From NCBI RefSeq assembly GCF_040436345.1, contig NC_133238.1:1488501-1552500 (forward strand): a stretch of DNA of 64,000 bases. The letters are read 5' to 3'. A model generated the notes under the pieces. It saw only the letters and a program-made list of their open reading frames with translations. It made no database searches and had not been told where the DNA came from. The position numbers and the translations under genes were made by a program. The stretch comes from Pagrus major (lineage: Eukaryota; Chordata; Actinopteri; Spariformes; Sparidae). Positions 16,498 to 51,770 of the stretch are shown in pieces (the stretch's first letter is position 1; each line of letters begins with the position of its first letter).

Positions 16498-17785
<1,288 letters not shown>

Positions 17786-21412: not shown

Positions 21413-23489
21413 AATTAAAACTGCAAGCAGTGATGAACGGGCCCTCGCAGTCCACGCGGGTCGGGGCATGTTGCTGTCGGGACATGCTGCTGTCGGGGCA
21501 TGCTGCTATCGGGGCATGCTGCTGTCGGGGCATGCTCCTGTTGTGACATGCTGCTTTCGGGGCATGCTGCTGTTGTGACATGCTGCTTTCGGGGCTTCTT
21601 CATGCAACAACTTCCATTGAGGAAATGAAAGTGAAGGCAGCCAAGCTGTCATTTCGTCATTTAGCAATAAAAGCGCCACCTATTGGTGGATATGCACCGA
21701 ATTTTGCACAAACCCTCATGTGGGCATGGACCACAAATCAAAAAAGTTTTGTTTTAATCGGACTATATTTTGTAGAGATATGAAGAACTGTGTGTTTGAC
21801 TGCAATGTGCAGGAAGTTGTAGTTGTATATTTTGGTCGTTGTTTGGACTATCACAATTCTTTTGATAACTTTTCGTCAGGAGGGTCCACAGATGCTGTGT
21901 GCAAAGTTTGGTGCAAATGGGAGAAATTACCTGAGAGGAGTTCGAAAAAGTAACTTTGCGATATTTGGCGAATTTGCGAATGGAAATTTAGCATGAAAGT
22001 GGGCGCGGCCTACATCATACAAGTCAACTGAATTCAGGGAACACGTAGATATGAGGTTTAAAAGTGTGCGACAAATTATGTGGGAGTTATTAGGCAAAAA
22101 CGCTTTTGTGTTGATAATAGCGCCACCTGCTGGTCATTTTTGGTGTGTGAGTTCCAGGGGCCAGTCTATACCACCCCTATCAATTTCATATCCATAAGTG
22201 TTATGGTGTGGGCACAGTGCCAAATATGAAATGAAAGTGCCACCAGAGCGCCACCTAGTGTCTGATGGGTAAGACCTTTGTCAGCTATGCTCAGGACGGC
22301 AATGACAATAATTCTACCAAGTTTTGTGTTAATCCGACCAACCGATGTGGAGATATAAAATACTTCAATTTAAAGTGCGCCACCTAGTGGTCACCGGGCA
22401 ATATTTTGCACAGACCCTAAAGCTTAGTTTATGCTTCTGCGTCAGGTCGACGGCATACCTACGCCGTAGCTACACCATCGACGCAGACCCCTACGCCGTA
22501 GCCTGACGTGCACCTCCAAAAAATCCTAACTACGCGTCGCGTTGACGCGGACCGCAAGCGCTGTGATTGGTCCGCTCAGAACGTAATTTCCGGCAGTTGC
22601 TTTTTCCGGTCGTACAGACCACCTCCGCAAACGTCTTCTCTGTCGCCTGCGCTTTAACATTTACAATATAAGCATTTGCTCTTCAATATTGATCCAACTC
22701 CAAATACAGCTGCTCCACCTCGGTCGCCATTGTTTACTGTTGTTTAGTGTGACCGGAAGAAAAAAGCAAGGATTCGGCTATAACCCCTGAAACCACACAG
22801 CCACACAGCCACACCCCCCTGGCGGCATGGCGGTGAATTGCAGAGCAATGCAGACCCTTGACGCAGAACTTCAAATGCTCAACAACGGCGTCACGTCGAC
22901 GGCGTAGGTACGGCGTCGACGTGACGCAGAAGCATAAACTAAGCTTAAGGGGCTCATGTGGAAGTAGTATCCTGAGTTTCATGTCAATTGGACACACCAA
23001 TGTGGAGATATGCAAAACTTCCTGTTTGGAACAAAATCTGCAGGAAGTTGTTATTTAATAACTTCAGTATTCTTTGGAATATCAAAATTCTTTTAATAAC
23101 TTTTTGTCAGGAGAGTCCACAGATTATGTGTGCAAAGTTTCGTGCAAATCTGTGAAATTGCCTGGGAGGAATTCGAAAAAGTAGGTTTGCGACATTTCGC
23201 GAGCTAGCGGAAAAAAACGGTAGGCGGAAATGGGCGTGGCCTATATCAGGAGATTCAGCACAATTCACTGAACGCAAGGATATAAGGTTTTTGAATTTGC
23301 AACAAAGTATATGGGAGTTATAAGCCAAAACGCACTGTGTCCTTGATTATAGCGCCACCTAGTGGTGGAAATTCACAACGACAACAGATTATAAAATTTT
23401 TCGCCAGGCCTAATGTGTTTGCCAAATCGCGTTTTCATCCATGTTCAGGCCGTGAAAAATGCGATCATTTTGGACAAAGAAAAATAAAA
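21413..23489 (+). mobile_element. Array copy A, diverged, no terminal hairpin
   Basis: Starts 'attaaaactgcaagcag' and contains a GC-rich minisatellite (about 21460-21600, repeating 'catgctgctgtcggggc'-like units of about 18 bp). The family body with 'gcgccacctagtggt' words follows. It ends at 'ggacaaagaaaaataaa' directly against unit 0. A 515-bp MITE is inserted at 22431-22945. Confidence 0.8.
22428..22948. mobile_element. Harbinger-type MITE, 515 bp, TAA target duplication
   Basis: Element 22431-22945 has long inverted ends: 'agcttagtttatgcttctgc' on the left and its exact complement on the right, continuing into GTCGACGG-type repeats. TAA flanks both sides (22428-22430 and 22946-22948). 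The empty site is visible in sister copies of the array (for example 'cacagccttaggggctcatg' near 26240), which confirms the insertion. A 3-bp TWA duplication is typical of PIF/Harbinger. No transposase inside. Confidence 0.92.
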
Positions 23490-25198
23490 ATTAAAGCTGC
23501 AAGCAGCGATGAACGGGCCCTCGCAGGCCACGCGGGTCGGGGCGTGCTGCCGTCGGGGCGTGCTCCTTACCCGGACCCATTGCCCCGTTATTGTGCGCGC
23601 ATGTCTTAACTGATAGCCAAAAACGGTATTGTGTTGATAATAGCGCCACCTGCTGGTGATTTTTGGTGTGTGAGTTACAGATGCCAGTCTATACCACCCC
23701 AATCAGTTTCATATCCATAAGTGTTATGGTGTGGGCACAGTGCCAATGATAAAATGAAATTGCCACCAGAGCGCCACCTATTGTCAGATCGGTAACACCT
23801 TCGTCAGCTGTCCTCAGGAGGCCATTGGCAATCAGTGTACCAAGTTTTGTGTTAATCCGACCAACCAATGTCGAGATATAAAATAGTTCAATTTAAAGAG
23901 CGCCACCTAGTGGTCATCAACGAAAATTTAGCACAGAGCCTTAGGGCCTCATGAGGAAGTAGGATCCTGAGGTTGACGTCATTTGGACAAACCAATGTGG
24001 AGATATGCAACACTTCCTGTTTGGAACGAAATCTGCAGGAAGTTGTTATTTAATAACTTGAGTATTTCTTGGAATATCAAAATTCTTTTAATAACTTTTT
24101 GTCAGGAGGGTCTACAGATGCTGTGTGCAAAGTTTTGTGCAAATTGGTGAAATTGCCTGGGAGGAGTTCGAAAAAGTAGGTTTGCGACATTTGGCGAATT
24201 TGCCAATTGAGTTCTGGCGAGAAAGTGGGCGTGGCCTACATCACACAGTCCAGCTGAATTCAGGGAACACGTAGATATAAGGTTTAACAATGTGCACCAT
24301 ATTATGTGGGAGTTATTAGGCAAAAATGGTTTGTGTTGATGATAGCGCCCCCTGCTGGTCATTTTTGGTGTGTGAGTTACAGGGGCCGGTCTATACCACC
24401 CCTATGAATTTCATATCCATAAGTGTTATGGTGTGGGCACAGTGCCAAATATAAAAAGAAACTGCCACCAAAGCGCCACCTAGTGTCAGATCGGTCACCC
24501 CTGTGTCAGCTATCCTCAGGAGGCCATTGGCAAGGAGTGTACCAAGTTTTGTGTTAATCCGACCAACCGATGTCGAGATATAAAATAGTTCAATTTAAAG
24601 AGCGCCACCTAATGGTCATCAACCAAAATTTAGCACAGAGCCTTAGGGCCTCATGAGGAAGTAGGATCCTGAGGTTGACGTCATTTGGACAAACCAATGT
24701 GGAGATATGCAACACTTCCTATTTGGAACGAAATCTGCAGGAAGTTGTTATTTAATAACTTGAGTATTTCTTGGAATATCAAAATTCTTTTAATAACTTT
24801 TTGTCAGGAGGGTCCACAGATGCTGTGTGCAAAGTTTGGTGCAAATTGGTGAAATTGCCTGGGAGGAGTTCGAAAAAGTAGGTTTGCGACATTTCGCGAG
24901 CTAGTGAAAAAAAACGCCAGGCAGAAATGGGCGTGGCCTATATCAGGAGATTCAGCACAATTCACTGAACGCGTGGATATAAGATTTTTGAAGGTGCGAC
25001 AAAGTATGTGGGAGTTATTAGCCAAAACGTACTTTCCTTGATAATAGCGCCACCTAGTGGTGCACGTTCACAACAACAACAGATTATAAAATTTTTCGCC
25101 AAGCCTAATGACTTTGCCAAATAAAATCGACTTTTCATTCACATTCAGGCAGTGAAAAATGCGATCATTTTGGACGAAGGAATAAAATAATAATAATA
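23490..25198 (+). mobile_element. 1709-bp array unit 0
   Basis: Sequence that I cannot distinguish from units 1-4 by eye. It contains an internal direct duplication of about 702 bp ('gcgccacctagtggtcatca' at 23900 and a near copy at 24602). The 3' end runs through an AAT microsatellite into a single terminal hairpin block. No gene: the repeated minus-strand open frames (73, 86 and 88 residues) follow from the repeat. Confidence 0.9.
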
Positions 25199-25200
25199 AT

Positions 25201-25251
25201 AATCATTGCAATTACAATAGGGACCTCGCAGGTTCCCTGCTCGGGCCCTAA
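25201..25251 (+). repeat. Helentron-type right-terminal hairpin block (single copy)
   Basis: 'aatcattgcaattacaatag' leads into an imperfect stem ('gggacctcgcagg' pairing with 'cctgctcgggccc', 10-11 of 13 pairs) and ends in CTAA. This matches the hairpin-plus-CTRR design of Helitron-type 3' ends, the rolling-circle terminator. Confidence 0.75.
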
Positions 25252-26781
25252 TTAAAGCTGCAAGCAGCGATGAACGGGCCCTCGCAGTCCACGCGGGTCG
25301 GGGCTTGCTGCCGTCCGGGGCGTGCTCCTTACCCGGACCCAATGCCCCGTTATTGTGCGCGCATGTCGTAACTGATAGCCGTCGTTACATGCTGCTGTTG
25401 TTACATGCTGCTGTCGGGGCTTGTTCATGCAACAACTTCCGTTGAGGAATCAAAAGTGAAGGCAGTGAAGCTGTCATTTCGTCATTTAGCAATAAAAGCG
25501 CCACCTATTGGTCAATTTCCACGAAATTTGGTAGAAATGCTCATCGTGCCATGGAACACAATTGCCAAAAGTTTTGTGTTCATCGGACTGTGTTTCATCA
25601 AGATACACAAGAATGTCTGTTTGACCACAATGTGCAGGAAATTGTTGTTTTATATTTTGGGCGTTCTGTGGACTAGCACATTTCTTTTAATAACTTTTTG
25701 TCAGGAGGGTCCACAGATGCTGCGTGCAAAGTTTGGTGCAAATCGGAGAAATTGCCTGGGAGGAGTTCGAAAAAGTAGGTTTGCGACATTTGGCGAATTT
25801 GCGAATGGAAATTCAGTGCGAACGTGGGCGTGGCCTACATCACACGGTTCGGCTGTATTCAGGGAACATATAGATATAATGTTTAACAATGTGCACCATA
25901 TTATGTGGGAGTAATTAGCAAAAAACTTTTTTTCTTGATAATAGCGCCACCTGCTGGTCATTTTTGGTGTGTGAGTTACAGGGGCCGGTCTATACCACCC
26001 CTATGAATTTCATATCCATAAGTGTTATGTTGTGGGCACAGTGCCAATTATAAAATGAAACTGCCACCAGAGCGCCACCTAGTGTCAGATCGGTAACACC
26101 TTCATCAGTTGTCCTCAGGAGGCCATTGGCAATCAGTGTACCAAGTTTTGTGTTAATCTGACCAACCGATGTTGAGATATAAAATACTTCAATTTAAATA
26201 GCGCCACCTAGTGGTCATGGGCCAAGATTTTGCACACAGCCTTAGGGGCTCATGGGGAAGTAGTATCCTGAGTTTCACGTCATTTGGACAAACCAATGTG
26301 GAGATATGCAAGACTTCCTGTTGTGACCCGAATCCACAGGAAGTTGTTATTTAATAACTTGAGTACTCCTTGGCGTATCAAAATTCTTTTAATAACTTTT
26401 TGTCAGAAGCATCCATAGATGCTGTTTGCAAAGTTTGGTGCAAATCGGTGAAATTGCCCGGGAGGAGTTCGAAAAAGTAGGTTTTTGACATTTCGCGAGC
26501 TAGCGAAAAAAAACGGTAGGCGGAAATGGGCGTGGCCTATATCAGGTGATTCAGCAAGATTCACTGAACGCGTGCATATAAGGTTTTTGAATGTGCGACA
26601 AAGTATGTGGGAGTTATTAGCCAAAAGACACTTTCCTTGATTATAGCGCCACCTAGTGCTGAAAATTCACAACGACAACAGATTATAAAATTTTTCGCCA
26701 GGTCTGATCTATATTCCAAGTTTGATGAGTTTTGGGGTATGTTCAGGCAGTGAAAAATGCGATCATTTGGGAACAAGAAAA
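25251..26781 (+). mobile_element. Array copy C, diverged, no terminal hairpin
   Basis: Left end as in the other copies, then the minisatellite and 'gctgtcggggcttgttcatg', the uninterrupted version of the junction that is split by the coding body in the 18-kb copy. It diverges from the 1709-bp units by scattered substitutions and by lacking their 5' deletion. It joins unit 1 directly at 26782. Confidence 0.82.
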
Positions 26782-29700
26782 ATTAAAGCTGCAAGCAGCG
26801 ATGAACGGGCCCTCGCAGGCCACGCGGGTCGGGGCGTGCTGCCGTCGGGGCGTGCTCCTTACCCGGACCCATTGCCCCGTTATTGTGCGCGCATGTCTTA
26901 ACTGATAGCCAAAAACGGTATTGTGTTGATAATAGCGCCACCTGCTGGTGATTTTTGGTGTGTGAGTTACAGATGCCAGTCTATACCACCCCAATCAGTT
27001 TCATATCCATAAGTGTTATGGTGTGGGCACAGTGCCAATGATAAAATGAAATTGCCACCAGAGCGCCACCTATTGTCAGATCGGTAACACCTTCGTCAGC
27101 TGTCCTCAGGAGGCCATTGGCAATCAGTGTACCAAGTTTTGTGTTAATCCGACCAACCAATGTCGAGATATAAAATAGTTCAATTTAAAGAGCGCCACCT
27201 AGTGGTCATCAACGAAAATTTAGCACAGAGCCTTAGGGCCTCATGAGGAAGTAGGATCCTGAGGTTGACGTCATTTGGACAAACCAATGTGGAGATATGC
27301 AACACTTCCTGTTTGGAACGAAATCTGCAGGAAGTTGTTATTTAATAACTTGAGTATTTCTTGGAATATCAAAATTCTTTTAATAACTTTTTGTCAGGAG
27401 GGTCTACAGATGCTGTGTGCAAAGTTTTGTGCAAATTGGTGAAATTGCCTGGGAGGAGTTCGAAAAAGTAGGTTTGCGACATTTGGCGAATTTGCCAATT
27501 GAGTTCTGGCGAGAAAGTGGGCGTGGCCTACATCACACAGTCCAGCTGAATTCAGGGAACACGTAGATATAAGGTTTAACAATGTGCACCATATTATGTG
27601 GGAGTTATTAGGCAAAAATGGTTTGTGTTGATGATAGCGCCCCCTGCTGGTCATTTTTGGTGTGTGAGTTACAGGGGCCGGTCTATACCACCCCTATGAA
27701 TTTCATATCCATAAGTGTTATGGTGTGGGCACAGTGCCAAATATAAAAAGAAACTGCCACCAAAGCGCCACCTAGTGTCAGATCGGTCACCCCTGTGTCA
27801 GCTATCCTCAGGAGGCCATTGGCAAGGAGTGTACCAAGTTTTGTGTTAATCCGACCAACCGATGTCGAGATATAAAATAGTTCAATTTAAAGAGCGCCAC
27901 CTAATGGTCATCAACCAAAATTTAGCACAGAGCCTTAGGGCCTCATGAGGAAGTAGGATCCTGAGGTTGACGTCATTTGGACAAACCAATGTGGAGATAT
28001 GCAACACTTCCTATTTGGAACGAAATCTGCAGGAAGTTGTTATTTAATAACTTGAGTATTTCTTGGAATATCAAAATTCTTTTAATAACTTTTTGTCAGG
28101 AGGGTCCACAGATGCTGTGTGCAAAGTTTGGTGCAAATTGGTGAAATTGCCTGGGAGGAGTTCGAAAAAGTAGGTTTGCGACATTTCGCGAGCTAGTGAA
28201 AAAAAACGCCAGGCAGAAATGGGCGTGGCCTATATCAGGAGATTCAGCACAATTCACTGAACGCGTGGATATAAGATTTTTGAAGGTGCGACAAAGTATG
28301 TGGGAGTTATTAGCCAAAACGTACTTTCCTTGATAATAGCGCCACCTAGTGGTGCACGTTCACAACAACAACAGATTATAAAATTTTTCGCCAAGCCTAA
28401 TGACTTTGCCAAATAAAATCGACTTTTCATTCACATTCAGGCAGTGAAAAATGCGATCATTTTGGACGAAGGAATAAAATAATAATAATAATTAAAGCTG
28501 CAAGCAGCGATGAACGGGCCCTCGCAGGCCACGCGGGTCGGGGCGTGCTGCCGTCGGGGCGTGCTCCTTACCCGGACCCATTGCCCCGTTATTGTGCGCG
28601 CATGTCTTAACTGATAGCCAAAAACGGTATTGTGTTGATAATAGCGCCACCTGCTGGTGATTTTTGGTGTGTGAGTTACAGATGCCAGTCTATACCACCC
28701 CAATCAGTTTCATATCCATAAGTGTTATGGTGTGGGCACAGTGCCAATGATAAAATGAAATTGCCACCAGAGCGCCACCTATTGTCAGATCGGTAACACC
28801 TTCGTCAGCTGTCCTCAGGAGGCCATTGGCAATCAGTGTACCAAGTTTTGTGTTAATCCGACCAACCAATGTCGAGATATAAAATAGTTCAATTTAAAGA
28901 GCGCCACCTAGTGGTCATCAACGAAAATTTAGCACAGAGCCTTAGGGCCTCATGAGGAAGTAGGATCCTGAGGTTGACGTCATTTGGACAAACCAATGTG
29001 GAGATATGCAACACTTCCTGTTTGGAACGAAATCTGCAGGAAGTTGTTATTTAATAACTTGAGTATTTCTTGGAATATCAAAATTCTTTTAATAACTTTT
29101 TGTCAGGAGGGTCTACAGATGCTGTGTGCAAAGTTTTGTGCAAATTGGTGAAATTGCCTGGGAGGAGTTCGAAAAAGTAGGTTTGCGACATTTGGCGAAT
29201 TTGCCAATTGAGTTCTGGCGAGAAAGTGGGCGTGGCCTACATCACACAGTCCAGCTGAATTCAGGGAACACGTAGATATAAGGTTTAACAATGTGCACCA
29301 TATTATGTGGGAGTTATTAGGCAAAAATGGTTTGTGTTGATGATAGCGCCCCCTGCTGGTCATTTTTGGTGTGTGAGTTACAGGGGCCGGTCTATACCAC
29401 CCCTATGAATTTCATATCCATAAGTGTTATGGTGTGGGCACAGTGCCAAATATAAAAAGAAACTGCCACCAAAGCGCCACCTAGTGTCAGATCGGTCACC
29501 CCTGTGTCAGCTATCCTCAGGAGGCCATTGGCAAGGAGTGTACCAAGTTTTGTGTTAATCCGACCAACCGATGTCGAGATATAAAATAGTTCAATTTAAA
29601 GAGCGCCACCTAATGGTCATCAACCAAAATTTAGCACAGAGCCTTAGGGCCTCATGAGGAAGTAGGATCCTGAGGTTGACGTCATTTGGACAAACCAATG

Positions 29701-32700
29701 TGGAGATATGCAACACTTCCTATTTGGAACGAAATCTGCAGGAAGTTGTTATTTAATAACTTGAGTATTTCTTGGAATATCAAAATTCTTTTAATAACTT
29801 TTTGTCAGGAGGGTCCACAGATGCTGTGTGCAAAGTTTGGTGCAAATTGGTGAAATTGCCTGGGAGGAGTTCGAAAAAGTAGGTTTGCGACATTTCGCGA
29901 GCTAGTGAAAAAAAACGCCAGGCAGAAATGGGCGTGGCCTATATCAGGAGATTCAGCACAATTCACTGAACGCGTGGATATAAGATTTTTGAAGGTGCGA
30001 CAAAGTATGTGGGAGTTATTAGCCAAAACGTACTTTCCTTGATAATAGCGCCACCTAGTGGTGCACGTTCACAACAACAACAGATTATAAAATTTTTCGC
30101 CAAGCCTAATGACTTTGCCAAATAAAATCGACTTTTCATTCACATTCAGGCAGTGAAAAATGCGATCATTTTGGACGAAGGAATAAAATAATAATAATAA
30201 TTAAAGCTGCAAGCAGCGATGAACGGGCCCTCGCAGGCCACGCGGGTCGGGGCGTGCTGCCGTCGGGGCGTGCTCCTTACCCGGACCCATTGCCCCGTTA
30301 TTGTGCGCGCATGTCTTAACTGATAGCCAAAAACGGTATTGTGTTGATAATAGCGCCACCTGCTGGTGATTTTTGGTGTGTGAGTTACAGATGCCAGTCT
30401 ATACCACCCCAATCAGTTTCATATCCATAAGTGTTATGGTGTGGGCACAGTGCCAATGATAAAATGAAATTGCCACCAGAGCGCCACCTATTGTCAGATC
30501 GGTAACACCTTCGTCAGCTGTCCTCAGGAGGCCATTGGCAATCAGTGTACCAAGTTTTGTGTTAATCCGACCAACCAATGTCGAGATATAAAATAGTTCA
30601 ATTTAAAGAGCGCCACCTAGTGGTCATCAACGAAAATTTAGCACAGAGCCTTAGGGCCTCATGAGGAAGTAGGATCCTGAGGTTGACGTCATTTGGACAA
30701 ACCAATGTGGAGATATGCAACACTTCCTGTTTGGAACGAAATCTGCAGGAAGTTGTTATTTAATAACTTGAGTATTTCTTGGAATATCAAAATTCTTTTA
30801 ATAACTTTTTGTCAGGAGGGTCTACAGATGCTGTGTGCAAAGTTTTGTGCAAATTGGTGAAATTGCCTGGGAGGAGTTCGAAAAAGTAGGTTTGCGACAT
30901 TTGGCGAATTTGCCAATTGAGTTCTGGCGAGAAAGTGGGCGTGGCCTACATCACACAGTCCAGCTGAATTCAGGGAACACGTAGATATAAGGTTTAACAA
31001 TGTGCACCATATTATGTGGGAGTTATTAGGCAAAAATGGTTTGTGTTGATGATAGCGCCCCCTGCTGGTCATTTTTGGTGTGTGAGTTACAGGGGCCGGT
31101 CTATACCACCCCTATGAATTTCATATCCATAAGTGTTATGGTGTGGGCACAGTGCCAAATATAAAAAGAAACTGCCACCAAAGCGCCACCTAGTGTCAGA
31201 TCGGTCACCCCTGTGTCAGCTATCCTCAGGAGGCCATTGGCAAGGAGTGTACCAAGTTTTGTGTTAATCCGACCAACCGATGTCGAGATATAAAATAGTT
31301 CAATTTAAAGAGCGCCACCTAATGGTCATCAACCAAAATTTAGCACAGAGCCTTAGGGCCTCATGAGGAAGTAGGATCCTGAGGTTGACGTCATTTGGAC
31401 AAACCAATGTGGAGATATGCAACACTTCCTATTTGGAACGAAATCTGCAGGAAGTTGTTATTTAATAACTTGAGTATTTCTTGGAATATCAAAATTCTTT
31501 TAATAACTTTTTGTCAGGAGGGTCCACAGATGCTGTGTGCAAAGTTTGGTGCAAATTGGTGAAATTGCCTGGGAGGAGTTCGAAAAAGTAGGTTTGCGAC
31601 ATTTCGCGAGCTAGTGAAAAAAAACGCCAGGCAGAAATGGGCGTGGCCTATATCAGGAGATTCAGCACAATTCACTGAACGCGTGGATATAAGATTTTTG
31701 AAGGTGCGACAAAGTATGTGGGAGTTATTAGCCAAAACGTACTTTCCTTGATAATAGCGCCACCTAGTGGTGCACGTTCACAACAACAACAGATTATAAA
31801 ATTTTTCGCCAAGCCTAATGACTTTGCCAAATAAAATCGACTTTTCATTCACATTCAGGCAGTGAAAAATGCGATCATTTTGGACGAAGGAATAAAATAA
31901 TAATAATAATTAAAGCTGCAAGCAGCGATGAACGGGCCCTCGCAGGCCACGCGGGTCGGGGCGTGCTGCCGTCGGGGCGTGCTCCTTACCCGGACCCATT
32001 GCCCCGTTATTGTGCGCGCATGTCTTAACTGATAGCCAAAAACGGTATTGTGTTGATAATAGCGCCACCTGCTGGTGATTTTTGGTGTGTGAGTTACAGA
32101 TGCCAGTCTATACCACCCCAATCAGTTTCATATCCATAAGTGTTATGGTGTGGGCACAGTGCCAATGATAAAATGAAATTGCCACCAGAGCGCCACCTAT
32201 TGTCAGATCGGTAACACCTTCGTCAGCTGTCCTCAGGAGGCCATTGGCAATCAGTGTACCAAGTTTTGTGTTAATCCGACCAACCAATGTCGAGATATAA
32301 AATAGTTCAATTTAAAGAGCGCCACCTAGTGGTCATCAACGAAAATTTAGCACAGAGCCTTAGGGCCTCATGAGGAAGTAGGATCCTGAGGTTGACGTCA
32401 TTTGGACAAACCAATGTGGAGATATGCAACACTTCCTGTTTGGAACGAAATCTGCAGGAAGTTGTTATTTAATAACTTGAGTATTTCTTGGAATATCAAA
32501 ATTCTTTTAATAACTTTTTGTCAGGAGGGTCTACAGATGCTGTGTGCAAAGTTTTGTGCAAATTGGTGAAATTGCCTGGGAGGAGTTCGAAAAAGTAGGT
32601 TTGCGACATTTGGCGAATTTGCCAATTGAGTTCTGGCGAGAAAGTGGGCGTGGCCTACATCACACAGTCCAGCTGAATTCAGGGAACACGTAGATATAAG

Positions 32701-33617: not shown

Positions 33618-33620
33618 ATA

Positions 33621-33774
33621 ATCATTGCAATTACAATAGGGACCTCGCAGGTTCCCTGCTCGGGCCCTAATAATCATTGCAATTACAATAGGGACCTCGC
33701 AGGTTCCCTGCTCGGGCCCTAATAATCATTGCAATTACAATAGGGACCTCGCAGGTTCCCTGCTCGGGCCCTAA
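33621..33774 (+). repeat. Triplicated right-terminal hairpin block, 52-bp period
   Basis: Three identical copies of the terminal block at 33621, 33673 and 33725. Each holds 'tcattgcaattacaataggg', the stem 'gggacctcgcagg' / 'cctgctcgggccc' and CTAA. The last CTAA abuts the left end of the 18-kb copy. Confidence 0.9.
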
Positions 33775-35896: not shown

Positions 35897-35905
35897 TATA
35901 AAAAA
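35897..35905 (+). promoter_or_regulatory. TATA box of the Helentron gene
   Basis: TATAAAAAA lies about 30 bp before a pyrimidine/purine transition and upstream of a segment ending in a strong splice donor at 36096. A C/T-rich tract (about 35755-35830) precedes it. Inferred from position; the transcription start is not proven. Confidence 0.55.
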
Positions 35906-35926
35906 GGGCCGACGTCCTGAGCTGCC

Positions 35927-40500: not shown

Positions 40501-43500
40501 AGGTGCGGTTAGTGCCATTGTTCTTCATAACGAGTACTTTGTGGTTGTTGATTGTGGCACACGTGATGCATCTGGGATGGCATCAAGTATTGGCACGTCT
40601 GTGGCTGTCTTTAACACGTGCCTTAATGACTTGATGCTTCACATCAGTTGTTTGAAGAACTCTTTAGGTGCAAAGTGGTATGCCGTCTATGGCATTTCTG
40701 TCATGTTGTGTCCAGTACATGGCAACAGGGAGAGTGCTACATTGTTTGCAGGCGAGACTGTTGACGTCAGCGTTGCAGCAGAGCTTGAGGACATCATTTC
40801 GGTCAGGCCAGAGAGTGACGTAAGATCAATCAGGGGAAGTTTTCACCAAGGGGACGCTCGGTTCCAACACGGAGGGCTCCAGTGTATGGCTGTCAGTTTG
40901 GTAGCTTTAGCCAAACACAGCATCGATACTGTGTTTTTGTGGCAGTCTGGCGATCTGGATAAGGTTGTAGAGTTAGGGGACGAGCTCTACACGTCGTTGC
41001 GTGAAAGTAATTCCATCAGCGGGAGTTCTGAACTGCTGTGTGTTCCAGATTTGCCCAAAGAGTCCATTATTGATGGAGAGAAATTTCAGTTTGAGTATGG
41101 TGACTACGTTTCTGGTGATGTTGATGTTGTTGAGGGACAGCTTGTTGATGCAGGTGTGTACACCACTCTCAGGAATGGTTTGGGAAAGATGTTTAGCAAA
41201 TATGACACATGCTTTCTGACTGTGAGTGGCACCACGTGTGGTATCATTGGTCGAGATGGGCAGTATGCCGTTGTTGATTCTCATGCACGCGATGCAGATG
41301 GCATGGTAGATGTTAACGGGTTTAGTGTTGTTGTTTATTTTAGTTGCCTTGATCGTGTGTTTGATCACATATGTAAATTTACGAGTGCAATGAACGCTCC
41401 AAAGCTGTTTGAGATTGCTGGTGTTTGTGTCACTCACAAAAGTCAAAGTGCAAATGAGGAAAGAAGAGAGGTTGAGTTTGTTTGTAGCTTACCTGTTCAG
41501 CCAGCACTTAGTGTGTCAACTGAACAGGTAACACTTGACAACAACAGTCAGAGAGGTGTGAAACGCAAGATTTCAGTGGGTAATCATGGATCGAAAAAGT
41601 GTAAAAGCAGGGACGTGAATGTGGTTAATTCAGACGTTGTATTTGTCAGTGATGTGATAAGTAAAAGTTTTGAGTTCAATCCGCTGCGTAGTCACGTTGC
41701 ACAAGCTTTGTGCAAACAGTTGAACGTAGAGTCACAGAAACTTGATCTGGCATCAACAGAGGTTGGTGCATTAGGGGCTCCTTGTAAGAACGAGAAAATA
41801 GTTGGTGATGGTAATTGTTTCTTTAGAGCGGTTAGTCAAGCTGTGTGTGGCACAGAGAACAATCATAGAAAAATTAGATTAGCTGTGTTTAAGCAATTAC
41901 GTGCCAATCCTCTAGCATATACTTTGCGTCCTGAGTATTCCTCAATGTCAGATTATCTGAGTAGATCAAGAATGCACTGTCTTGGTAGTTGGGCCACTGA
42001 AGTGGAGATTCAAGCAGCAGCAGATTGTTTAGGAGTAAATATTTTCACATTTTGTGGTGATCGCTGGCTTGAATACAGTTGCAAGAATAAGCAGTTGTCC
42101 AATCAGGCAGTGTATTTAGAGAATTGTAATGGTAACCATTATGAGACTGTTGTTTGTGTCATGCAGCCTCAGATGCAGACTTGTTATAGGTACTGCAAAG
42201 TGAGCGTGTCTCGTTTTGGACGGTACAATTTAAGACAGAAAAGTAGAGAGAGTAGCGTTTGTGCTGTGACTTCAAGTACAGTTATAGGTATAGGTTGTGT
42301 AGCTGAAGAAGTTATTAATATTGAAGACAATGTTATACAACAGCAGCATAGTACTGTGTCTACACAAGAGCCGACCACATTTACATTTAAACCAAGTCAT
42401 ATTAGTTCTTCTAAGTATTTGCAATGTAAAAAGAACTTAAAAAGAAAAATGGAATACAAGGAAAATGATTTGCATAGGGAGAAAATCAAGGAAATTGGTA
42501 AAGGGAAATATAAGACAAATGTTTTGCATAGGATGAATGTCATTGAAATCAAGAAAAGGAAATATAGGCAAAATGTAGTACATAAGCAGAAAGTTAAGGA
42601 GATGAGTAAAATGAAATATAAACAAAATGAAGTACATAAGGAGAAAGTTAAGGAGATGAGTAAAATGAAATATAAACAAAATGTAGTACATAAGGAGAAA
42701 GTTAAGGAGATGAGTAAAATGAAATATAGGCAAAATATTTTACATAAGCATAAAGTTAAGGGGATGAGTACAATGAAATATAGGCTAAATATTTTACATA
42801 AGCAGAAAGTTAAGGAGATGAGTAAAATGAAATATAGGCAAAATATTTTACATAAGCAGAAAGTTAAAGAGATGAGTAAAATGAAATATAGGCAAAATAT
42901 TTTACATAAGCAGAAAGTTAAAGAGATGAGTAAAACGAAATATAGGATAAATGTATTATATAAGCATAAAGTTAAGGAGATGAGTAAAATAAAATATAGG
43001 CTAAATGTATTACATAAGCAGAAAGTTAAGGAGATGAGTAAAATGAAATATAGGCTAAATGTATTACATAAGCAGAAAGTTAAAGAGATGAGTAAAATGA
43101 AATATAGGCTAAATGTATTACATAAGCATAAAGTTAAGGAGATGAGCAAATTGAAATATAGGCAAAATGCAGTACATAAGCATAATGTTAAGGACATGAG
43201 TAAAAAGAAATACAGGGAAAGTGAAGTTCATAGGCAGCATGTAAAAGCCATGAGTACAAGTAAGTACCATGGAAGTGCTGAGCATAAGAAACGTGTTATA
43301 TCAGGAAACAAATTGAAAAGGGAACAAAATAAAGAAAAGGCAGAGCAGTTTGATTATGTTACAGAACAGTTTTGGGATAAAGTTAAAGATGGCCCAGATT
43401 TTGTATGCTGTGTGTGCCACAGAGGGTTGTTTAAGAATCAGGTTTTGAAGTGTAAAAGAGATTACTATACTAAAAGGAAAGAAATAGGTTTAATTGCAGA

Positions 43501-46500
43501 TGAATGTATTAGTGAAGAATATTTACATAAATGTCATCAGGAATGCATATTGCCGTGTAAATGGTTGGATACAGCTAAAGGAGAACTGTGGATTTGTAGC
43601 ACGTGTCATTCTAAGATTAGTAAGGGTGTGGTGCCACCTGAATGTACACTGAACAATTTGGCTGTTTGTCCCATTCCACCACAATTGGCGTGTTTGAATA
43701 GTTTAGAGCAACATTTGATTGCGTTGCATATTTTGTTTATGAAGATGTTGGCGTTGCCTAAAGGTGGGCAAAATGGAGTACATGGACCTGTAACTTGTGT
43801 TCCTGCAAATATTGTGCAGACGAGCAATTTGCTGCCACGTACAGACATGGAAGGATCTTTGTTGCCAGTAAAGTTGAAGCGGAAGCTTACCTATAAAGGA
43901 CATTATGAGTATCAGTTTGTTGATAGTATGCGTATAAGGCAGGCTTTGCAATATTTAAAACAGACAAATGTACATTATAAAGATGTAGAGTTTAATGAAG
44001 CATGGATAAACCAGTTCTGTAGGGAAAAGGATACTGATTGCAATTGTGATGGTGAAATATGTGCAGATGTTGGGGAAGATGAGCTTTTGCATGATAGACA
44101 ACAACATTGCATGTTCCAGGACACTTGTCTTATGCCTGTAGATATTGGTCAGGAAACACTGGATCAATATTTTGATGATATATTGAATGTTGCTCCAGCA
44201 GAAGGTAACTCTCCTGTCAGGTTGTTGTCTGATCATACAAATGAAGCAAAATGCTTCCCGGTGTTGTTTCCTAATGGATTTGGTACATATCGTGATAGTA
44301 GACAACATCGTTTGACTTTGTCACGTTACTTTAATAACAGGATTTTACATGCTGATGGGAGATTTGCACAAAATGTTGAATATATCTTTTTTGCTCAGTA
44401 CTTATCTGAGGTAGAACAGGTTGTGTCAAATGTATCGATAGCATTGCGGAAGGGTAAAGGAGGTGCTACATCTCAAAAAGTTAGCAAAAATTTATTGACT
44501 GATGAAGAATCTTTGAAGAAGTTGTTACAGTTTGATGATGGGTTTCGTTTTCTTAAACCCATTAGAGGTACCCCATCTTTTTGGCAGGGAGCCCAGCGCG
44601 ATTTGATGGCTTGTGTTCGTCAGTTGGGTGTGCCCACCTGGTTTTGTTCATTTTCTTCAGCTGACATGCGGTGGAAAAATCTCCTCAATAGTATTTTGAA
44701 GCAGGCAGGTAGAACAGAGACAGCTGAACAGTTAGAATGGGCAGATAGGTGTCAACTTTTGCGCGGCAATCCGGTCACTGCAGCCACAATGTTTGATTTT
44801 CGCTGGCATTGTTTTTTGAGAGAGGTGCTCATGTCTCCATGTAATCCTATTGGCAAAATAAAGGATTATTTTTATAGGGTGGAATTCCAGCAGCGTGGAT
44901 CACCACATGTTCACTGCCTCTTTTGGATAGAAAATGCCCCTATAATTGATAAAAACACAGATGAAGAGGTAGTTGAATTTATTGATCACTATGTGACATG
45001 TGAATTACCAGCACAGGATGAAACATTATTGGACATTGTTACATCTGTGCAACAACATTCAAAACGACATTCAAAATCTTGTAAAAAGAATAAAACTGTT
45101 TGTCGATTCAATTTTCCTAAGCCTCCGTCCGCAAAAACGTTTATTTCACGTCAAGTCACTGAAGAGGATGGCACAAAATCTTGTAAATGTAAGGTAGATG
45201 AAGAACAGAAATTGGACAGCTGTGCATGCAAAAATGAGGGGCAGAAAAAACCAGAGATCATGAAAAAAGAGATTGCAGTCGCCATTATGACAAAAATTAA
45301 AACAGCTCTTTCAGATGAGAATGCCAGTTTTGATAGTGTGCAACAGTTGTTTAGACATTTAGGACTAAATCAAAGTGTTTTTGAGGCTGCATACAATCGT
45401 GTTGGCAGGAAAACGCATGTTGTTTTGAAGAGGCAGGCGAACGAGGTTTGGATAAATCAGTATAGCAAACCGCTTTTAAAATGCTGGAATGCTAATATAG
45501 ACATCCAATATGTCGTTGATGCCTATGCTTGTGTCGTGTACATTATTTCTTACATCTCCAAGGCAGAAAAGGAGATGGGGTTGTTGTTAGGAAATGCTCA
45601 GAGGGAAGCAGCTAAAGAGGGTAATACAAGCGCGAAAGATGCATTGAAAAATTTAGGAAGTGTGTATTTACACAACAGGGATGTTTGTGCTCAAGAGGCA
45701 GTGTATAGATTGACAAACATGCATCTTAAGGAGTGCTCTAGGAAAGTTGTGTTTGTGCCAATTGGGGAGAACATAGTTAGAATGAGTTTGCCTTTAAGTG
45801 TGTTAAAACAAAAGGCATCATCACATGATTTTAACAATGATGATATGTGGATGAGGAATACTGTTGACAGGTACAAGAACAGGCCAAAGGATAGTACATT
45901 TAATGACATGTGTTTGGCAACATTTGCATCAGAGTATCGTGTTTTGAGTAAAAATGAAAGATGTGTCAATAGGGTTAAACTAAACAATAATTGTGGTTTT
46001 GTTGTGAAAAGAACACGTACGCAGCCTGCCGTTGTTCGTTACGTGCGGTTTTCAGAGACTAAGAATCCGGAATTGTTTTATCAGAGCATTTTGCAGTTGT
46101 TCCTGCCATATTGTAAAGACAGGCAGCTCAAACCACCAGGGTTTGAGACGTTTGAGCAGTTCTATAGTCATGGTCGTGTGAGATTAGGTGATAAATCGCT
46201 ACATTTAGTTAAAGCAGTTGTTGATCAGAACAGATGCAAATTTGAAAGAGATGCAGATGAGTTGGATGATATCCAAACTGGAATCAGTACTGACGGTGTT
46301 GTAGAAGATGCCTGGTGCGAGCTGTGCCCAGAGCAGGAGTTGGAGCGTTTAGAGTGTATAGAAGAACGTAGAGAGGTTGAGCAGATAGTGGACGAACATG
46401 TAGATAACATTCCAGATTTAGCAATAAACAATAAACATGTTGCACATTTAGAAAAAAGGAACAATGTCCTCTGCAGACATGACGGTTTGACTTTAGTTAG

Positions 46501-48607
46501 GTCTCTGAATGAGACACAGATGTGTATTTTTTATCAGATTAGGCAGTGGTGCTTAGATAGTGTAAATGGAGCAAAGCCAAATCCCATACATGTATTTATT
46601 ACAGGCGGTGCGGGTACAGGTAAGAGCCATTTGATCAAGGCTCTACAGTACGAGGCAATGAGGTTGTTGTCGAGAGTGTGTCGCGATCCGGACGACATTT
46701 GCGTTCTACTAACAGCTCCTACAGGGATAGCGGCGCACAATATAAGTGCACCTACTATTCACAATGCATTTAGTATTGGTAAAGATGTACGCTTACCTTA
46801 CACTCCATTGGGTGAGGAGAAGCTGAATTCTTTACGTGCTAAATATAGTAGCTTGCAGCTTTTGATAATAGATGAAATCTCCATGGTTGATCACAAACTA
46901 TTGGCTTATATCCATGGAAGATTAAGACAAATTAAGCAATGTGGTGACTATTCCCCGTTTGGAAATGTTAGTGTAATTGCAGTTGGAGATTTTTATCAGT
47001 TGCCTCCGGTGAAAGGAAAAGCTTTGTATTTAGATGATGTAGGTGTTGATTTGTGGTCTCACTTGTTTAAGATAGCAGAATTGAAAACAATCGTTCGTCA
47101 GAAAGATCAGGTATTTGCAGAGTTGTTGAACAGAGTTAGAACTCGTTCAAAAGGTACCCCTATGTTGGATGGCGACATTGAAATATTACAACGTTGTGAA
47201 ACCGGCAAAGACAGCTCAGCTTTACACATATTTCCCACAAATCGACAAGTAAATGAGCATAATGTACAGCAGTTGTTGAAGAGTTGTCCGGATTATGTTG
47301 AGATACAGGCTCAGGATTATGTGAACAGTAAGAAAACAGGCAAGCTTGAGTTGATAAGAGGACATCATTCCAGAGCATATGACACATGTCTGGATGAAAC
47401 ACTGCTTTTAGGGAAAGATGCCCGTGTAATGCTGTTTAAGAATTTAGATGTAGCGGACGGTCTAGTTAATGGGGTGTGTGGCACTGTCACACACATAGCT
47501 TATCCAGAGAATGACAGAACAAGGTTTCCTCAGACAGTGTATGTTAAATTTGATGACGCTAGGGTAGGCGTACAGAAGAGGAAACGCTGTGCATTTGCCT
47601 CTGCAGTAGAAATGGGTTCCACGGCCATTGGACCTGAAGAGGATAGGGTAACTACAAAGGGTGGAATGCGTAGGCAATTTCCACTGAAGCTTGCCTGGGC
47701 TTGTACAGTACATAAAGTACAAGGCTTAACAGTAGATGAAGCAGTAGTGTCGCTTGAAAGAATTTTTGCAGCTGGACAGGCGTATGTAGCTTTGAGTCGG
47801 GTTAGAAATTTGTCAGGGTTAGTGATTAGGGATTTTAAGGAGAAAGCCATCTATTGTAAGGAGACAATTAAAGATGCAATTGAAAACATGCCCCCCTTCA
47901 TGGTCAACAATATTACAAGGCACAAATTCAATACGCAGACCTTTACTGTGTTTTTGATGAACGTGCAGAATTTGACGCAACATGTATCTGATTTGGCATT
48001 GTGTACACAGCATTTGCAGCTTAACTGTATTGCTATTACAGAAACATGGCTGCCTGCAGTTTCGTCACTTGAAACTGTAAAGATGGACGGATATGTTTTT
48101 CATAATCAGCCAAGGAATTTGTCCTACAGTAGCAGCAACCCAATATTGACAGAAATTCAAGGCCAACAACATGGTGGAGTTGGCGTTTATAGTGCAGACA
48201 ATTTGGCATGTAATGTTCTCCAGGTACCAAATGTAAATTTAGAATGTTTGGTTTACCACTGCACTAAATACAACATATTGATGGCAGTAGTTTACAGACC
48301 ACCATCTTATCCCATGACTCTGTTTAAACAAAATTTAAGCAAATTACTGGATTGGCTGAATCCAAAAAGTGACACAATTGTTGTCATGGGAGATTTCAAT
48401 GACGACATTTTGAAAACATCATCAATCTCCAAATTTATGGCAAACAAAGGGTTCGTTCAATTTGTGAAACAAGCGACAACAGAAAACGGCACACTAATTG
48501 ATCATGTGTATGTGAAAACAACACATCATATTGTTGAATCATTAGTGGTGCCAACTTATTTCAGTGACCATGAGGGGATCATGTGTTCTTTGACATCTAG
48601 GACATAG
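37544..48607 (+). CDS. Helentron Rep/helicase polyprotein with SGNH, C76-like, OTU and endonuclease domains (11 coding exons)
   Basis: Coding exons: 37544-37652, 37797-37900, 38023-38295, 38443-38536, 38691-38758, 38862-39080, 39189-39248, 39348-39488, 39650-39691, 39799-39879, 39980-48607. All junctions are GT-AG and phases agree, giving 3272 residues. Domains in order: basic start [21 protein letters not shown]-like 72-230 (GDSH 77-80, PSNN 132-135, D215/H218); C76-like module 1 (C470, expected His replaced by Gly); C76-like module 2 (C699, D830, H832); OTU (DGNC with C1010, H1117); 18-residue basic repeats about 1212-1510; Cys-rich region from about 1535; Helitron-like N and Rep (HVH 2040-2042, Y2251, Y2255); Pif1 helicase (GGAGTGKS, K2612; DE 2695-2696; VALSRVRNL); EEP endonuclease (ITETWL, D3202, N3204, D3260, H3261). 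Rep nicks and joins at the ends, helicase unwinds; the proteases' roles are unknown. The final 8.6-kb exon is fully open. Confidence 0.88.
37901..37968. repeat. ATA/AAG microsatellite in the second coding intron
   Basis: The run 'gtataataataataat' grades into AAG repeats inside the intron between exons 37797-37900 and 38023-38295. The donor GT lies immediately before the repeat. Confidence 0.85.
42424..43314 (+). repeat. 54-bp coding tandem repeats (about 16 copies)
   Basis: Inside the last exon, units of 18 codons repeat with consensus [18 protein letters not shown]. The central copies (about 42590-43140) are nearly identical, while the outer ones are diverged. The product is a highly basic, probably helical segment between the OTU domain and the Cys-rich region. 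A nucleic-acid-binding or spacer role is a guess. Confidence 0.9.
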
Positions 48608-49565
48608 AAGAATAGTTAAGGACAACACCAAGAAATTTTTGTTTACTTTTTAGGAGATTTGTTTAATTCTATATTGTATTAAATATATTAAAAAAAACAA
48701 CAAAAACAAGACATGAAAAATAAAAAAAAGTTCTTTGATATGTTTAGTTATTTATATGTGCATGTTTCCTTATGAATTTTGTGTAAATATATAGTGTGTG
48801 TTCAATATAAAAAAAAATACAAAATAACAAAAATATATTAAAAAACTAAACAAAAGTTCTTCATAATGTGTAGTTATTGATATATGCATTTTTCCTTAGG
48901 AGTTCTGTGTAATTCTATATTGTGTGTTCAATATAAAAACATTAAAATAACACACAAAAAACTGTTAGATATAAAAAAGGGTTTTCTTTCCTGCATTACA
49001 ACAGCATTTTTAACTAAAACATGTTATTACAAATAGTAATAATTATTCTAATCACTGATCTCAATTCTACACATTTGGATTCTCATAAGTAAAACATTTT
49101 ATTGAAAAAGATTGAGCTCATATATAGCACTTACTATACTGCAGTAATTGCATAATATCATTTGCTGCAAGTCATATGCTGTTGCTAATGGAGGTTTTGC
49201 TTTACCTTTCATGTAGCCTCAAAAAGCAAAAGGCACTGGTAATGGTACTCCTGGTTTACTGGGATGGGGTTCGATTCCCTGCAATGTCCTGCTGATTTTT
49301 TGGCATTTACATGAAAGCCAATATTTTACTCGATTACATTTATAATAACTGTCACTAAAAGTCGATAACACAAAATCTACATGAAATTGAATACATAAGA
49401 ATATTTTCCTAACAATGACAGTGGTTTCTTTTCCTGGAGCACTTTAACTAAAACATTTGTCATACAAACCACTTATTGAATATAACTATAATTACATGGT
49501 CATCCACAAGTGGTGTCCAAAATGAAGAACATGATTATTGAGATGCAAACTGTGTTTTATTCGTC
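48608..49565 (+). other. 3' UTR and AT-rich tail of the Helentron gene with 126-bp repeats
   Basis: AT-rich sequence with AATAAA at 48719-48724, a likely polyadenylation signal. Diverged tandem repeats of about 126 bp start at 48730 and 48856 ('gttctt...atgtgtagttatt'), with a weaker copy before them. No further coding region up to the point where family right-end sequence resumes. Confidence 0.6.
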
Positions 49566-51576
49566 TTGGGGCTTGTTCATGCAACACCTTCCATTGAGGA
49601 ATCAAAAGTGAAGGCACTCAATTCGTTCTTGCGCCATTTAGCAATAAAAGCGCCACCTATTGGCCAATTTTCACCAAATGTAGTAGAATCTGTCATTGGG
49701 CCATGGAGTACAATGTGTTGACAACAGTATGAAGGCAATACTTGTTTTATATTTTGACCGTTGTTTGGACTATCACAATTTTTTTAATAACCTTTTGGCA
49801 GGAGGATCCACAGATGCTGTGTGCAAAGTTTGGTGAAAATCACAGAAATTGCTTTGGAGGAGTTAGAAAAAGTAGGTTTGCAGCATTATGCAAATCTGCA
49901 AATGGAAAAATAGTGCAAAAGTGGGCGTGACCTACATCACGAAATTCAGCTGTATGCATGGAAAACATAGATATGAAGTTTAACAACATGTGCCATTGTA
50001 TGTGGGAGTTATTAGGCAAAAACTGTTTTGTGTTGATGATAGCGCCCCCTGCTGGTCAGTTTTGGTGTGTGAGTTACAGATGCCAGTCTATACCACCCCA
50101 ATCAGTTTCATATCCATAAGTGTTATGGTGTGGGCACAGTGCCACTTATAAAATGAAACTGCCACCAGAGCGCCACCTAGTGTCAGATCGATAACACCTT
50201 CGTCAGCTGTCCTCAGGAGGCCATTGGCAATGAGTGTACCAAGTTTCGTGTTAATCCGACCAACCGATGTCGAGATATAAAATACTTCAATTTAAATAGC
50301 GCCACCTAGTGGTCATGGGCCAAGATTTTGCACAGAGCCCTAGAGGCTCATGGGGAAGTACTGTCCTGAGTTTCATGTCATTCGGACACACCAATGTGGA
50401 GATATGCAACACTTCCTGTTTTGACCCGAATCCACAGGAAGTTGTTATTTAATAACTTGAGTATTCTTTGGCGTATCAAAATTCTCTTAATAACTTTTTG
50501 CCAGAAGGGTCCACTGATGCTGTGTGCAAAGTTTGGTGAAAATCGGTGAAATTGCCTGGGAGGAGTTGGAAAAAGTAGGTTTGCGACATTTCGCGAGCTA
50601 GCGAAAAAAAACGCTAGGCGCAAATGGGCGTGGCCTATATCAGGAGATTCAGCAAGATTCACTGAACGCGTGGATATAAGGTTCTTGAATGTGCGACAAA
50701 GTATGTGGGAGTTATTAGGCAAAAACGGTTTGTGTTAATGATAGCGCCACCTGCTGGTCATTTTTGGTGTGTGAGTTACAGGGGTCGGTCTATACCACCC
50801 CTGTCAATTTCATATCCATAAGTGTTATGGTGTGGGCACAGTGCCAAATATAAAAAGAAACTGCCACCAATGCGCCACCTAGTGTCAGATCGGTAACACC
50901 TTTGTCAGCTGTCCTCAGGAGGGCAGTGGCAATGAGTGTACCAAGTTTTGTGTTAATCCAACCAATCGATGTCGAGATATGAAATAGTTCAATTTAAAGA
51001 GCGCCACCTAGTGGTCATCAACCAAAATTTAGCACAGCCTTAGGGCCTCATGAGGAAGTAAGATCCTGAGTTTGACGTCATTCGGACACACCAATGTGGA
51101 GATATGCAACACTTCCTGTTTGGAACGAAATCTGCAGGAAGTTGTTATTTAATAACTTGAGTATTGTTTGGAATACCAAATTTCTTTTAATAACTTTTTG
51201 TCAGAAGGGTCCACAGATATTGTGTGCTAAGTTTGGTGCAAATCAATGAAATTGCCTGGGAGGAGTTCGAAAAAGTAGATTTGCGACATTTCGCGAGCTA
51301 GCGAAAAAAAACGCCACACAAATGGCCGTGGCCTATATCAGGAGATTCAGCAGAATTCACAGAACGCGTGGATATAAGGTTTTTGAATGTGCAACAAAGT
51401 ATATGGGAGTTATTAGCCAAAACACACTTTCCTTGATTGTAGCGCCACCTAGTGGTGAAAATTCTGAACGACAACAGATTATAAAATTTTTCGCCAGGTT
51501 TGATCTATATTCCAAGTTTGGTGACTTTTGGGGTATGTTCAGGCAGTGAAAAATGCGATCATTACGGACAAAGGAA

Positions 51577-51616
<40 letters not shown>
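49566..51616 (+). repeat. Right-hand body of the Helentron family in the 18-kb copy
   Basis: Starts 'ggggcttgttcatgcaac' and follows the same order of words as the short array copies ('gcgccacctagtggtca', 'gtgggcgtggcctacatcac', 'tatgtgggagttatta') with its own substitutions. It ends in an AAT microsatellite (about 51577-51616). Non-coding. Confidence 0.88.
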
Positions 51617-51617
<1 letters not shown>

Positions 51618-51618
<1 letters not shown>

Positions 51619-51770
51619 CATTACAATTACAATAGGGTCCTCGCAGTTTCACTGCTCGGGCCCTAATAATAATCATTACAAAAACAATAGGGTCCTTGCA
51701 GTTTCACTGCTCGGGCCCTAATCATTCGAAAAACAATAGGGACCTCGCAGGTTCCCTGCTCGGGCCCTAA
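51618..51770 (+). repeat. Three diverged right-terminal hairpin blocks ending in CTAA
   Basis: Blocks begin with 'tcatt' at 51618, 51673 and 51722 and end in CTAA at 51666, 51721 and 51770. The first two have the stem 'gggtcct(c/t)gcag' / 'ctgctcgggccc', the third the standard 'gggacctcgcagg' stem. Unlike the triplet at 33621-33774 they differ from each other, so this triplication is older or independent. Confidence 0.85.

What the first reader, a model, noticed from the sequence alone, without database searches (positions are those of the whole stretch)
21413..51770. A coding Helentron as the last unit of a 30-kb head-to-tail array of its own relatives
Eight elements with the same left end lie in one orientation with no spacer, and the eighth contains an intact Rep/helicase gene. 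Head-to-tail concatemers are what rolling-circle replication produces when it passes its terminator. Seeing the putative autonomous copy and near-identical short copies in one array would link the common fish 'gcgccacctagtggt' repeat to a driver element and to satellite birth.
Basis: partly seen in the sequence, partly recalled or inferred. Interest (0 to 1): 0.9.

Follow-up and report, generated by a model that had tools for sequence, protein, structure and literature searches.

The report
Nested array of fish Helentrons
This stretch of fish DNA holds eight related jumping elements packed end to end, one of which carries a seemingly intact transposition gene, and the joints suggest that they piled up largely by inserting into one another rather than by being copied out as one long chain.

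Summary
The array is real: eight units with one left end (LE), all on one strand, no spacer, 21413-51771. Unit 8 (33773-51771, 18 kb) is a Helentron: a 2875-codon open frame with two tegument-type deubiquitinase domains (one apparently dead), OTU, Rep, PIF1 helicase and C-terminal endonuclease, and upstream exons with a tentative SGNH-like domain. Units 1 and 3 align with unit 8 minus 15,681 bp, joined at GGGGC, so the short 'gcgccacctagtggt' units are HINEs of this family. Units 2 and 4-7, mutually 100% identical, are 86-87% identical to unit 8's 3' part: a relative, not shown to be their driver. The concatemer reading is weak: 2 of 7 junctions are right-end/left-end joints. Seven right ends (RE) are stacked like closing brackets; two RE-less units plus two stacked RE remnants rebuild unit 2 exactly (1761 bp; AAT tract 6 split 4+2). 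I favour nested self-insertion into the element's own AAT microsatellite, then local duplication. Unit 4 lacks a remnant and three joints coincide, which counts against pure nesting. One locus; no genome search was answered.

The parts
21413..23488 (+). Unit 1: HINE with LE, 16-bp minisatellite, body; no RE of its own in place; interrupted by a TIR element at about 22424-22942
23489..25249 (+). Unit 2: complete short element (1761 bp) with intact (AAT)6 tract and one RE (25220-25249); the uninterrupted comparison
25250..26780 (+). Unit 3: HINE that aligns with unit 8 minus its coding part; no RE in place
26781..28489 (+). Unit 4: 1709 bp, identical to units 2, 5, 6, 7; no RE and no remnant assignable to it
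28490..30198 (+). Unit 5: 1709 bp, identical; with RE remnant 33721-33772 it equals unit 2
30199..31907 (+). Unit 6: 1709 bp, identical; with RE remnant 33669-33720 it equals unit 2
31908..33668 (+). Unit 7: complete 1761-bp element with its own RE, identical to unit 2
33669..33772 (+). Two stacked RE remnants, 52 bp each, each beginning with (AAT)2
33773..51771 (+). Unit 8: 18-kb Helentron with the family's LE and RE
33773..33810 (+). LE of unit 8 with palindrome GCTGCAAGCAGC and 12-bp motif GGGCCCTCGCAG (motif in 8 of 8 LEs)
37544..39488 (+). Candidate upstream coding exons (tentative SGNH/GDSL-like domain), matched by annotated fish relatives; exon borders not verified
39980..48607 (+). Open frame of 2875 codons: VTD-like x2, OTU, 18-aa repeats, DUF6570, Rep, PIF1 helicase, AP endonuclease
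42554..43220 (+). 54-bp x 12.4 tandem repeat inside the frame
49568..51585 (+). 3' part of unit 8, homologous to the body of the short units ('gcgccacc' repeats)
51577..51618 (+). (AAT)14 microsatellite beside the RE of unit 8
51635..51768 (+). Three stacked REs that differ in sequence (51635-51664, 51690-51719, 51739-51768)

Best explanation
Unit 8 is an 18-kb, probably autonomous Helentron (endonuclease-bearing rolling-circle transposon) of a fish, and the seven short units are non-autonomous members (HINEs) of the same family. Shown: shared LE and RE, shared body, and units 1 and 3 alignable to unit 8 minus its coding part at a GGGGC microhomology. The array most likely grew by repeated insertion of family members, in one orientation, at AAT sites: into the (AAT)n microsatellite just inside the RE of each element, and beside LEs. 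An insertion into that tract cuts off the host element's RE and leaves it stacked behind the RE of the newcomer, so LEs and REs behave like opening and closing brackets (8 and 7). One orientation would follow if the Rep joins single-stranded element DNA to a T-rich target strand (inferred from the TT preference published for Helentrons). At least one later step, unequal exchange or rolling-circle amplification of the 1709-bp unit, must be added for unit 4. By published Helentron anatomy the element's 5' end is probably the window's right end, so that the gene lies antisense to the element (inferred).
For: Domains and catalytic residues. Shared ends: LE motif in 8 of 8 LEs, RE motif in 7 of 7 REs, and no other exact + strand copy of either in the window; first 60 bp of units 1-7 match unit 8 at 54-56 of 60; last 60 bp of the stack behind unit 7 vs that behind unit 8 49 of 60. 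Deletion joint, identical of aligned letters: unit 3 98/111 left and 1116/1262 right, unit 1 101/114 and 1410/1655. Nesting: unit 7, unit 6 + second RE remnant and unit 5 + third RE remnant each equal unit 2 over 1761 bp; for unit 6, of remnants with 0 to 6 AAT units only the one with 2 restores unit 2; intact tract 6, split 4+2. REs behind unit 8 differ from each other by 3 to 7 of 47, as expected if they belong to different elements. RE hairpin: z -3.8 to -5.1 in the 4 of 7 REs folded, with a compensatory G-C/T-A pair between types. Precedent: multiple 5' termini ascribed to self-insertion in Fusarium (PMC5148889, passages).
Against: Unit 4 has no RE remnant (8 LE, 7 RE). All three joints between identical units lie at the same AAT unit, which random hits in a six-unit tract would seldom do and tandem duplication gives for free (reasoning, no call). 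Valid bracket order alone arises in 22% of random orders. The REs behind unit 8 cannot be assigned to units 1 and 3 by sequence. An RE stack could also grow by 52-bp slippage. The equality rests partly on units already known to be identical; its independent content is the AAT count. Unit 8's 3' part is 86-87% identical to the identical units. One locus; assembly not checked.
Confidence: 0.6

Rival explanations
1. Rolling-circle amplification: a circle of LE plus body that had lost its RE was copied several times and integrated as a multimer ending in an RE (the model of Xiong et al. 2016 as told in the review PMC12628747).
For: Units 2 and 4-7 are 100% identical and the three joints among units 4-7 are alike. 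[quoted passage not shown] PMC12628747 passages).
Against: Predicts one RE at the end; 7 REs are present, 3 behind unit 7 and 3 behind unit 8. Read-through of an intact circle predicts RE/LE joints at every junction; 2 of 7 are so. Unit 3 (83%) separates unit 2 from its identical copies. By Helentron anatomy the end that is repeatedly missing would be the 5' end, not the 3' end.
Confidence: 0.2
2. Ordinary tandem duplication: one or a few adjacent insertions, then unequal exchange or slippage at AAT tracts multiplied the 1709-bp unit and, separately, the 52-bp RE unit.
For: Alike joints, perfect identity, unit 4 without remnant, RE unit behind unit 7 repeated with constant (AAT)2 spacing.
Against: Does not explain by itself why 4+2 AAT units add up to the intact 6, nor why the three REs behind unit 8 differ, the last having the hairpin of units 2 and 7.
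Confidence: 0.15
3. Unit 8 is not one element: a Helentron coding segment sits inside an unrelated HINE, and the termini belong to the HINE alone.
For: The coding part begins and ends at a GGGGC in or beside the HINE minisatellite; a gain of the coding part is not excluded.
Against: No match to the strict LE or RE pattern lies between 33811 and 51634 on either strand, so no second set of such termini was seen; Rep, helicase and endonuclease are the enzymes expected for such termini. Termini of another kind were not searched for.
Confidence: 0.05

Closest known systems
Helentrons and HINEs/DINE-1 (Thomas et al. 2014, PMC4067079)
   Same: Rep motif 2 of the Helentron type, PIF1 helicase, C-terminal endonuclease, OTU; subTIR with complementary IR, microsatellite, second subTIR and palindrome (read on the minus strand); short partners with the same ends
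   Different: 18 kb, candidate SGNH-like exons and two VTD domains; subTIR match 10 of 12 and 26 nt (not 38-60) from the 3' end; gene antisense to the anatomical 5' end (reported there for Helentron-Da-40). Identity of short to coding element, 86-87%, lies within the range given for mite (84-99.9%) but below Culex (>95%) and Drosophila (98%)
Fusarium FoHelis (Helitron2; PMC5148889)
   Same: Stacked 5' termini of some tens of bases, self-insertion proposed, insertion at TNAT-type sites, opposite ORF orientation in some groups
   Different: There inferred from copies in several genomes; here the uninterrupted counterpart (unit 2) lies in the same array and the site is the element's own microsatellite
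Cg_HINE of oyster (PMC7492417)
   Same: subTIR + IR + microsatellite, satellite-like central repeats, 3' subTIR + palindrome
   Different: No autonomous partner could be linked there; here a coding element shares the ends
Tandem Helitrons of bats and plants (as cited in PMC7492417 and PMC12628747)
   Same: Tandem copies, inner copies lacking one end
   Different: Many plant arrays have several 5' ends and one 3' end; here 8 LE and 7 stacked RE
VTD-containing Helentrons of zebrafish (PMC9741609)
   Same: Tegument-like deubiquitinase domain in a Helentron protein, with C, D and H aligned; OTU in some
   Different: Here the first of two copies reads D-C-G where the second reads D-S-H

Membership tests
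Helentron | Rep motif 2 with S between G and P, preceded by F/Y-x-R | tested here: met
   Window [20 protein letters not shown] in 14 of 14 aligned relatives, F-Y-R in 12 and F-H-R in 2; rule from PMC4067079
Helentron | PIF1 helicase joined to Rep | tested here: met
   PF14214 4.1e-30, PF05970 6.9e-23; Helraiser chain matched at 2.3e-15
Helentron | AP endonuclease fused to the C-terminus | tested here: met
   PF03372 4.5e-12 at residues 2680-2864; window reads GDFND and SDHE, relatives mostly alike with substitutions in some, P0041 lacks the last stretch
Helentron | Additional domains or ORFs: OTU protease or RPA | tested here: met
   OTU 3.9e-6; D-G-N-C in 11 of 11 relatives that reach there, H in 12 of 12; RPA not searched for outside the frame
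Helentron | Inverted subTIRs at both ends of one element | tested here: inconclusive
   12-bp inverted match, 10 of 12 identical; 41 of 2000 shuffles reach this; distance from the 3' end 26 nt, against 38-60 in the mite
Helentron | Palindrome near the 3' end | tested here: inconclusive
   LE has GCTGCAAGCAGC, kept as ACTGCAAGCAGT in unit 1, but the 2 of 8 LEs folded do no better than shuffles; the RE hairpin does
Helentron | Insertion in TT without target duplication | tested here: inconclusive
   AAT tract count conserved at internal joints; no empty site for the whole array available
HINE partner of unit 8 | At least 11 identical bp of subTIR shared (family rule of PMC4067079) | tested here: met
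   12-bp motif in 8 of 8 LEs and 7 of 7 REs
[quoted passage not shown]
   If LE is the 3' end: units 1-7 54-56 of 60. If RE is: units 2 and 7 49 of 60 against the last RE of unit 8, 56 of 60 against its first. REs within unit 8's stack fall at or below 80% against its last one (46 and 48 of 60)
RC-amplified tandem Helitron array | Several 5' ends with a single 3' end | tested here: not met
   8 LE, 7 RE

The most novel reading that the evidence does not exclude
The microsatellite that Helentrons and HINEs carry beside their IR is a built-in landing pad for their own family: each newcomer inserts there in the same orientation, which builds spacer-free arrays whose stacked ends can be read as brackets giving the order of insertion, and which seeds satellites without concatemeric replication.
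Probability: 0.3. Interest if true: 0.72.

Novelty: new variant of a known kind. Interest (0 to 1): 0.5.

Why it matters
If nesting holds widely, one route to satellite DNA needs no concatemer.

Tried and rejected
Simple read-through concatemer: rejected as sole cause (2 of 7 RE/LE joints). Unit 8 as recent direct parent of the identical units: not supported (86-87%). LE as a stable single-strand hairpin: not supported in the 2 of 8 LEs folded. Valid bracket order as proof: rejected, 22% by chance. First VTD copy: no Pfam match and no solved structure; shown only by similarity to the second copy. GDSL/SGNH in relatives: found below cut-off in 2 of the 4 relatives scanned (P0041, P0113) and not in the other 2 (P0006, P0010, E up to 0.05); precomputed for 9 of the 120 listed. 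LE and RE patterns in viral contigs and LE in genome contigs: 0 matches. Rep-helicase-endonuclease in viral contigs: 2 stretches matched a pattern, none confirmed. Text search for LE strings in papers: 0. Literature: 10 searches; some lists were cut (20 of 24, 20 of 571, 20 of 70 shown). I saw no fish array of this kind in the titles or abstract starts shown, and did not open most of those papers. Pritham and Feschotte 2007 and Xiong 2016 are not held and were seen only as cited by others; Poulter 2003 is recalled.
Full report
Observation. The eight left ends lie on the + strand at 21413, 23489, 25250, 26781, 28490, 30199, 31908 and 33773; on the + strand of 20 mononucleotide shuffles no LE or RE match was found. 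Right ends (RE) lie at 25220-25249, three at 33639-33772 and three at 51635-51768. The internal 15-mer occurs 42 times, all within the short units or the 3' part of unit 8. Self-comparison shows the array, and among the rows printed (150 bp and longer) no match of it to the flanks.

The coding unit. The frame 39980-48607 has 2875 codons without a stop. Pfam finds Helitron_like_N, PIF1, DUF6570, OTU and Exo_endo_phos. Residues 283-462 match the solved zebrafish Helitron VTD 8add, with the catalytic C, D and H aligned (residues named in PMC9741609, passages); Pfam calls this copy Herpes_teg_N (2.6e-6). C and D-S-H of this copy are kept in 11 of 11 relatives that reach there. A first copy is 28% identical to it and reads D-C-G; the three relatives that align well there read D-C-S (P0006, P0010) or D-C-G (P0012), so it is probably inactive. 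Rep, Walker and endonuclease motifs are recognisable in the relatives aligned, with substitutions in some: P0109 in the Walker motif, P0041 and P0085 in the endonuclease, P0041 without its last stretch. 936 relatives were found and 120 listed; the best are from Pagrus major (93%), Centropristis striata (89%) and Sparus aurata (89%), so the host is probably a percomorph fish (for two lineages); it was not identified. Annotated relatives extend upstream and match 37544-39488 in pieces, with GT/AG-like borders by eye. Lipase_GDSL_2 is found there, below the curated cut-off, in 2 of 4 relatives scanned (2.1e-5 and 1.3e-6; none in P0006 and P0010) and is precomputed for 9 of the 120 listed. The window's own exon gives only SGNH at E 0.034. 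The SGNH reading is tentative.

Link of short and long units. Leaving out 15,681 bp of unit 8 between two GGGGC copies gives a sequence that aligns across the joint with unit 3 (98/111 and 1116/1262 aligned letters) and unit 1 (101/114 and 1410/1655). The simplest reading is that these HINEs descend from a coding element by one deletion; the reverse, a coding part gained, is not excluded. The 12-bp motifs of LE and RE are in 8 of 8 and 7 of 7 ends. Units 2, 4, 5, 6 and 7 are identical over 1709 bp in 10 of 10 pairs, but 80.6% and 82.9% to units 1 and 3 and 86.3-86.7% to unit 8's 3' part. That is within the 84-99.9% given for mite HINEs and their Helentrons, and below the values for Culex and Drosophila (PMC4067079). 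Hence the same family by the published rules, but the driver of the identical units is not known.

How the array grew. Junctions U2|U3 and U7|U8 are RE then LE; the other five lack the RE. Unit 2 has an intact (AAT)6 tract before its RE. At the joints between identical units four AAT units precede the next LE (five with the one shared with LE), and the surplus REs behind unit 7 carry two. Unit 6 + second RE remnant and unit 5 + third remnant equal unit 2 exactly, and for unit 6 of 0 to 6 AAT units only 2 does so. This is what an insertion into the tract without target duplication leaves. Reading LE as '(' and RE as ')' gives a depth that never falls below zero and ends at 1; random orders of 8 and 7 stay non-negative in 22% of cases, so the order itself is weak evidence and the AAT sums and RE types carry more. 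The REs behind unit 8 differ from each other by 3 to 7 of 47; the first two have hairpins one base apart, the last has the hairpin of units 2 and 7. I assign them to units 8, 3 and 1 by nesting order; that is inference. Against: unit 4 has no remnant, and three joints coincide. A mixed history, nesting first and then duplication of the 1709-bp unit, fits all of this.

Ends and polarity. The RE hairpin is strong (z -3.8 to -5.1 in the 4 of 7 REs folded) and its two types differ by a compensatory pair. The LE palindrome is kept by a paired change in unit 1 but does not fold better than shuffles in the 2 LEs tried. Read on the minus strand the order is subTIR, IR, (ATT)n, repeats, subTIR, palindrome, which is the order given for oyster HINEs (PMC7492417, passages), in line with PMC4067079 and close to Fusarium Helitron2. 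The fit is not perfect: the subTIRs match at 10 of 12 (41 of 2000 shuffles), the inner one lies 26 nt from the end and the palindrome 7 nt, against 38-60 and 8-35 in the mite; Fusarium has about 20-40 for the inverted repeat. The element's 5' end would then be the window's right end and the gene antisense, as reported for Helentron-Da-40. The known tandem Helitrons, in which inner copies often lack the 3' end, would point the other way. I hold the minus-strand reading at about 0.7.

Against the literature. Tandem Helitrons, rolling-circle amplification without terminator, insertion preference as the cause of TE dimers (review PMC12628747, passages), self-insertion producing multiple 5' termini (PMC5148889, passages) and, by the title of a reference only, a helitron-like element that disrupts microsatellites in Lepidoptera (reference list of PMC4067079) are in print. 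What I did not see in the listings of 10 searches is an array in which the uninterrupted tract, the split tract and the displaced ends can all be read in one locus. Seen of the papers: PMC4067079 abstract, Background, two of three parts of Results, passages; PMC7492417, PMC5148889, PMC9741609 and PMC12628747 passages only.

Limits. No other fish locus and not even the source genome could be searched. Assembly quality is unknown, which matters most for 100% identical units. No expression or selection test was done. On checking, the confidences of two rivals were lowered (0.2 to 0.15 and 0.07 to 0.05) only so that the four readings do not add up to more than one.

Noticed in passing
37544-39488: Candidate upstream exons of the Helentron gene encode a tentative SGNH/GDSL-like domain. 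One search with these words listed no paper that by title or abstract start treats it in Helentrons.
   Followed up: partly
42554-43220: 54-bp repeat, 12.4 copies, in frame in the Helentron ORF (18-aa units).
   Followed up: no
22424-22942: Short TIR element (ends TTAGTTTATGCTTCTGCGTCA) inserted in unit 1.
   Followed up: partly
766-2886 (-): 706-aa open frame with reverse transcriptase domain, RVT_1 6.5e-37.
   Followed up: no
16497-17786: Tc1/Sleeping-Beauty-like transposase frame within 216-bp inverted repeats 99% identical.
   Followed up: no
52040-52234: 65-aa frame with a THAP-like match (7e-4, below cut-off) just right of the array.
   Followed up: no
53417-54815: About 600-bp inverted repeat, 93% identical.
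   Followed up: no
8506-9015: Trinucleotide (GAT)n tract giving a long poly-aspartate open frame.
   Followed up: no
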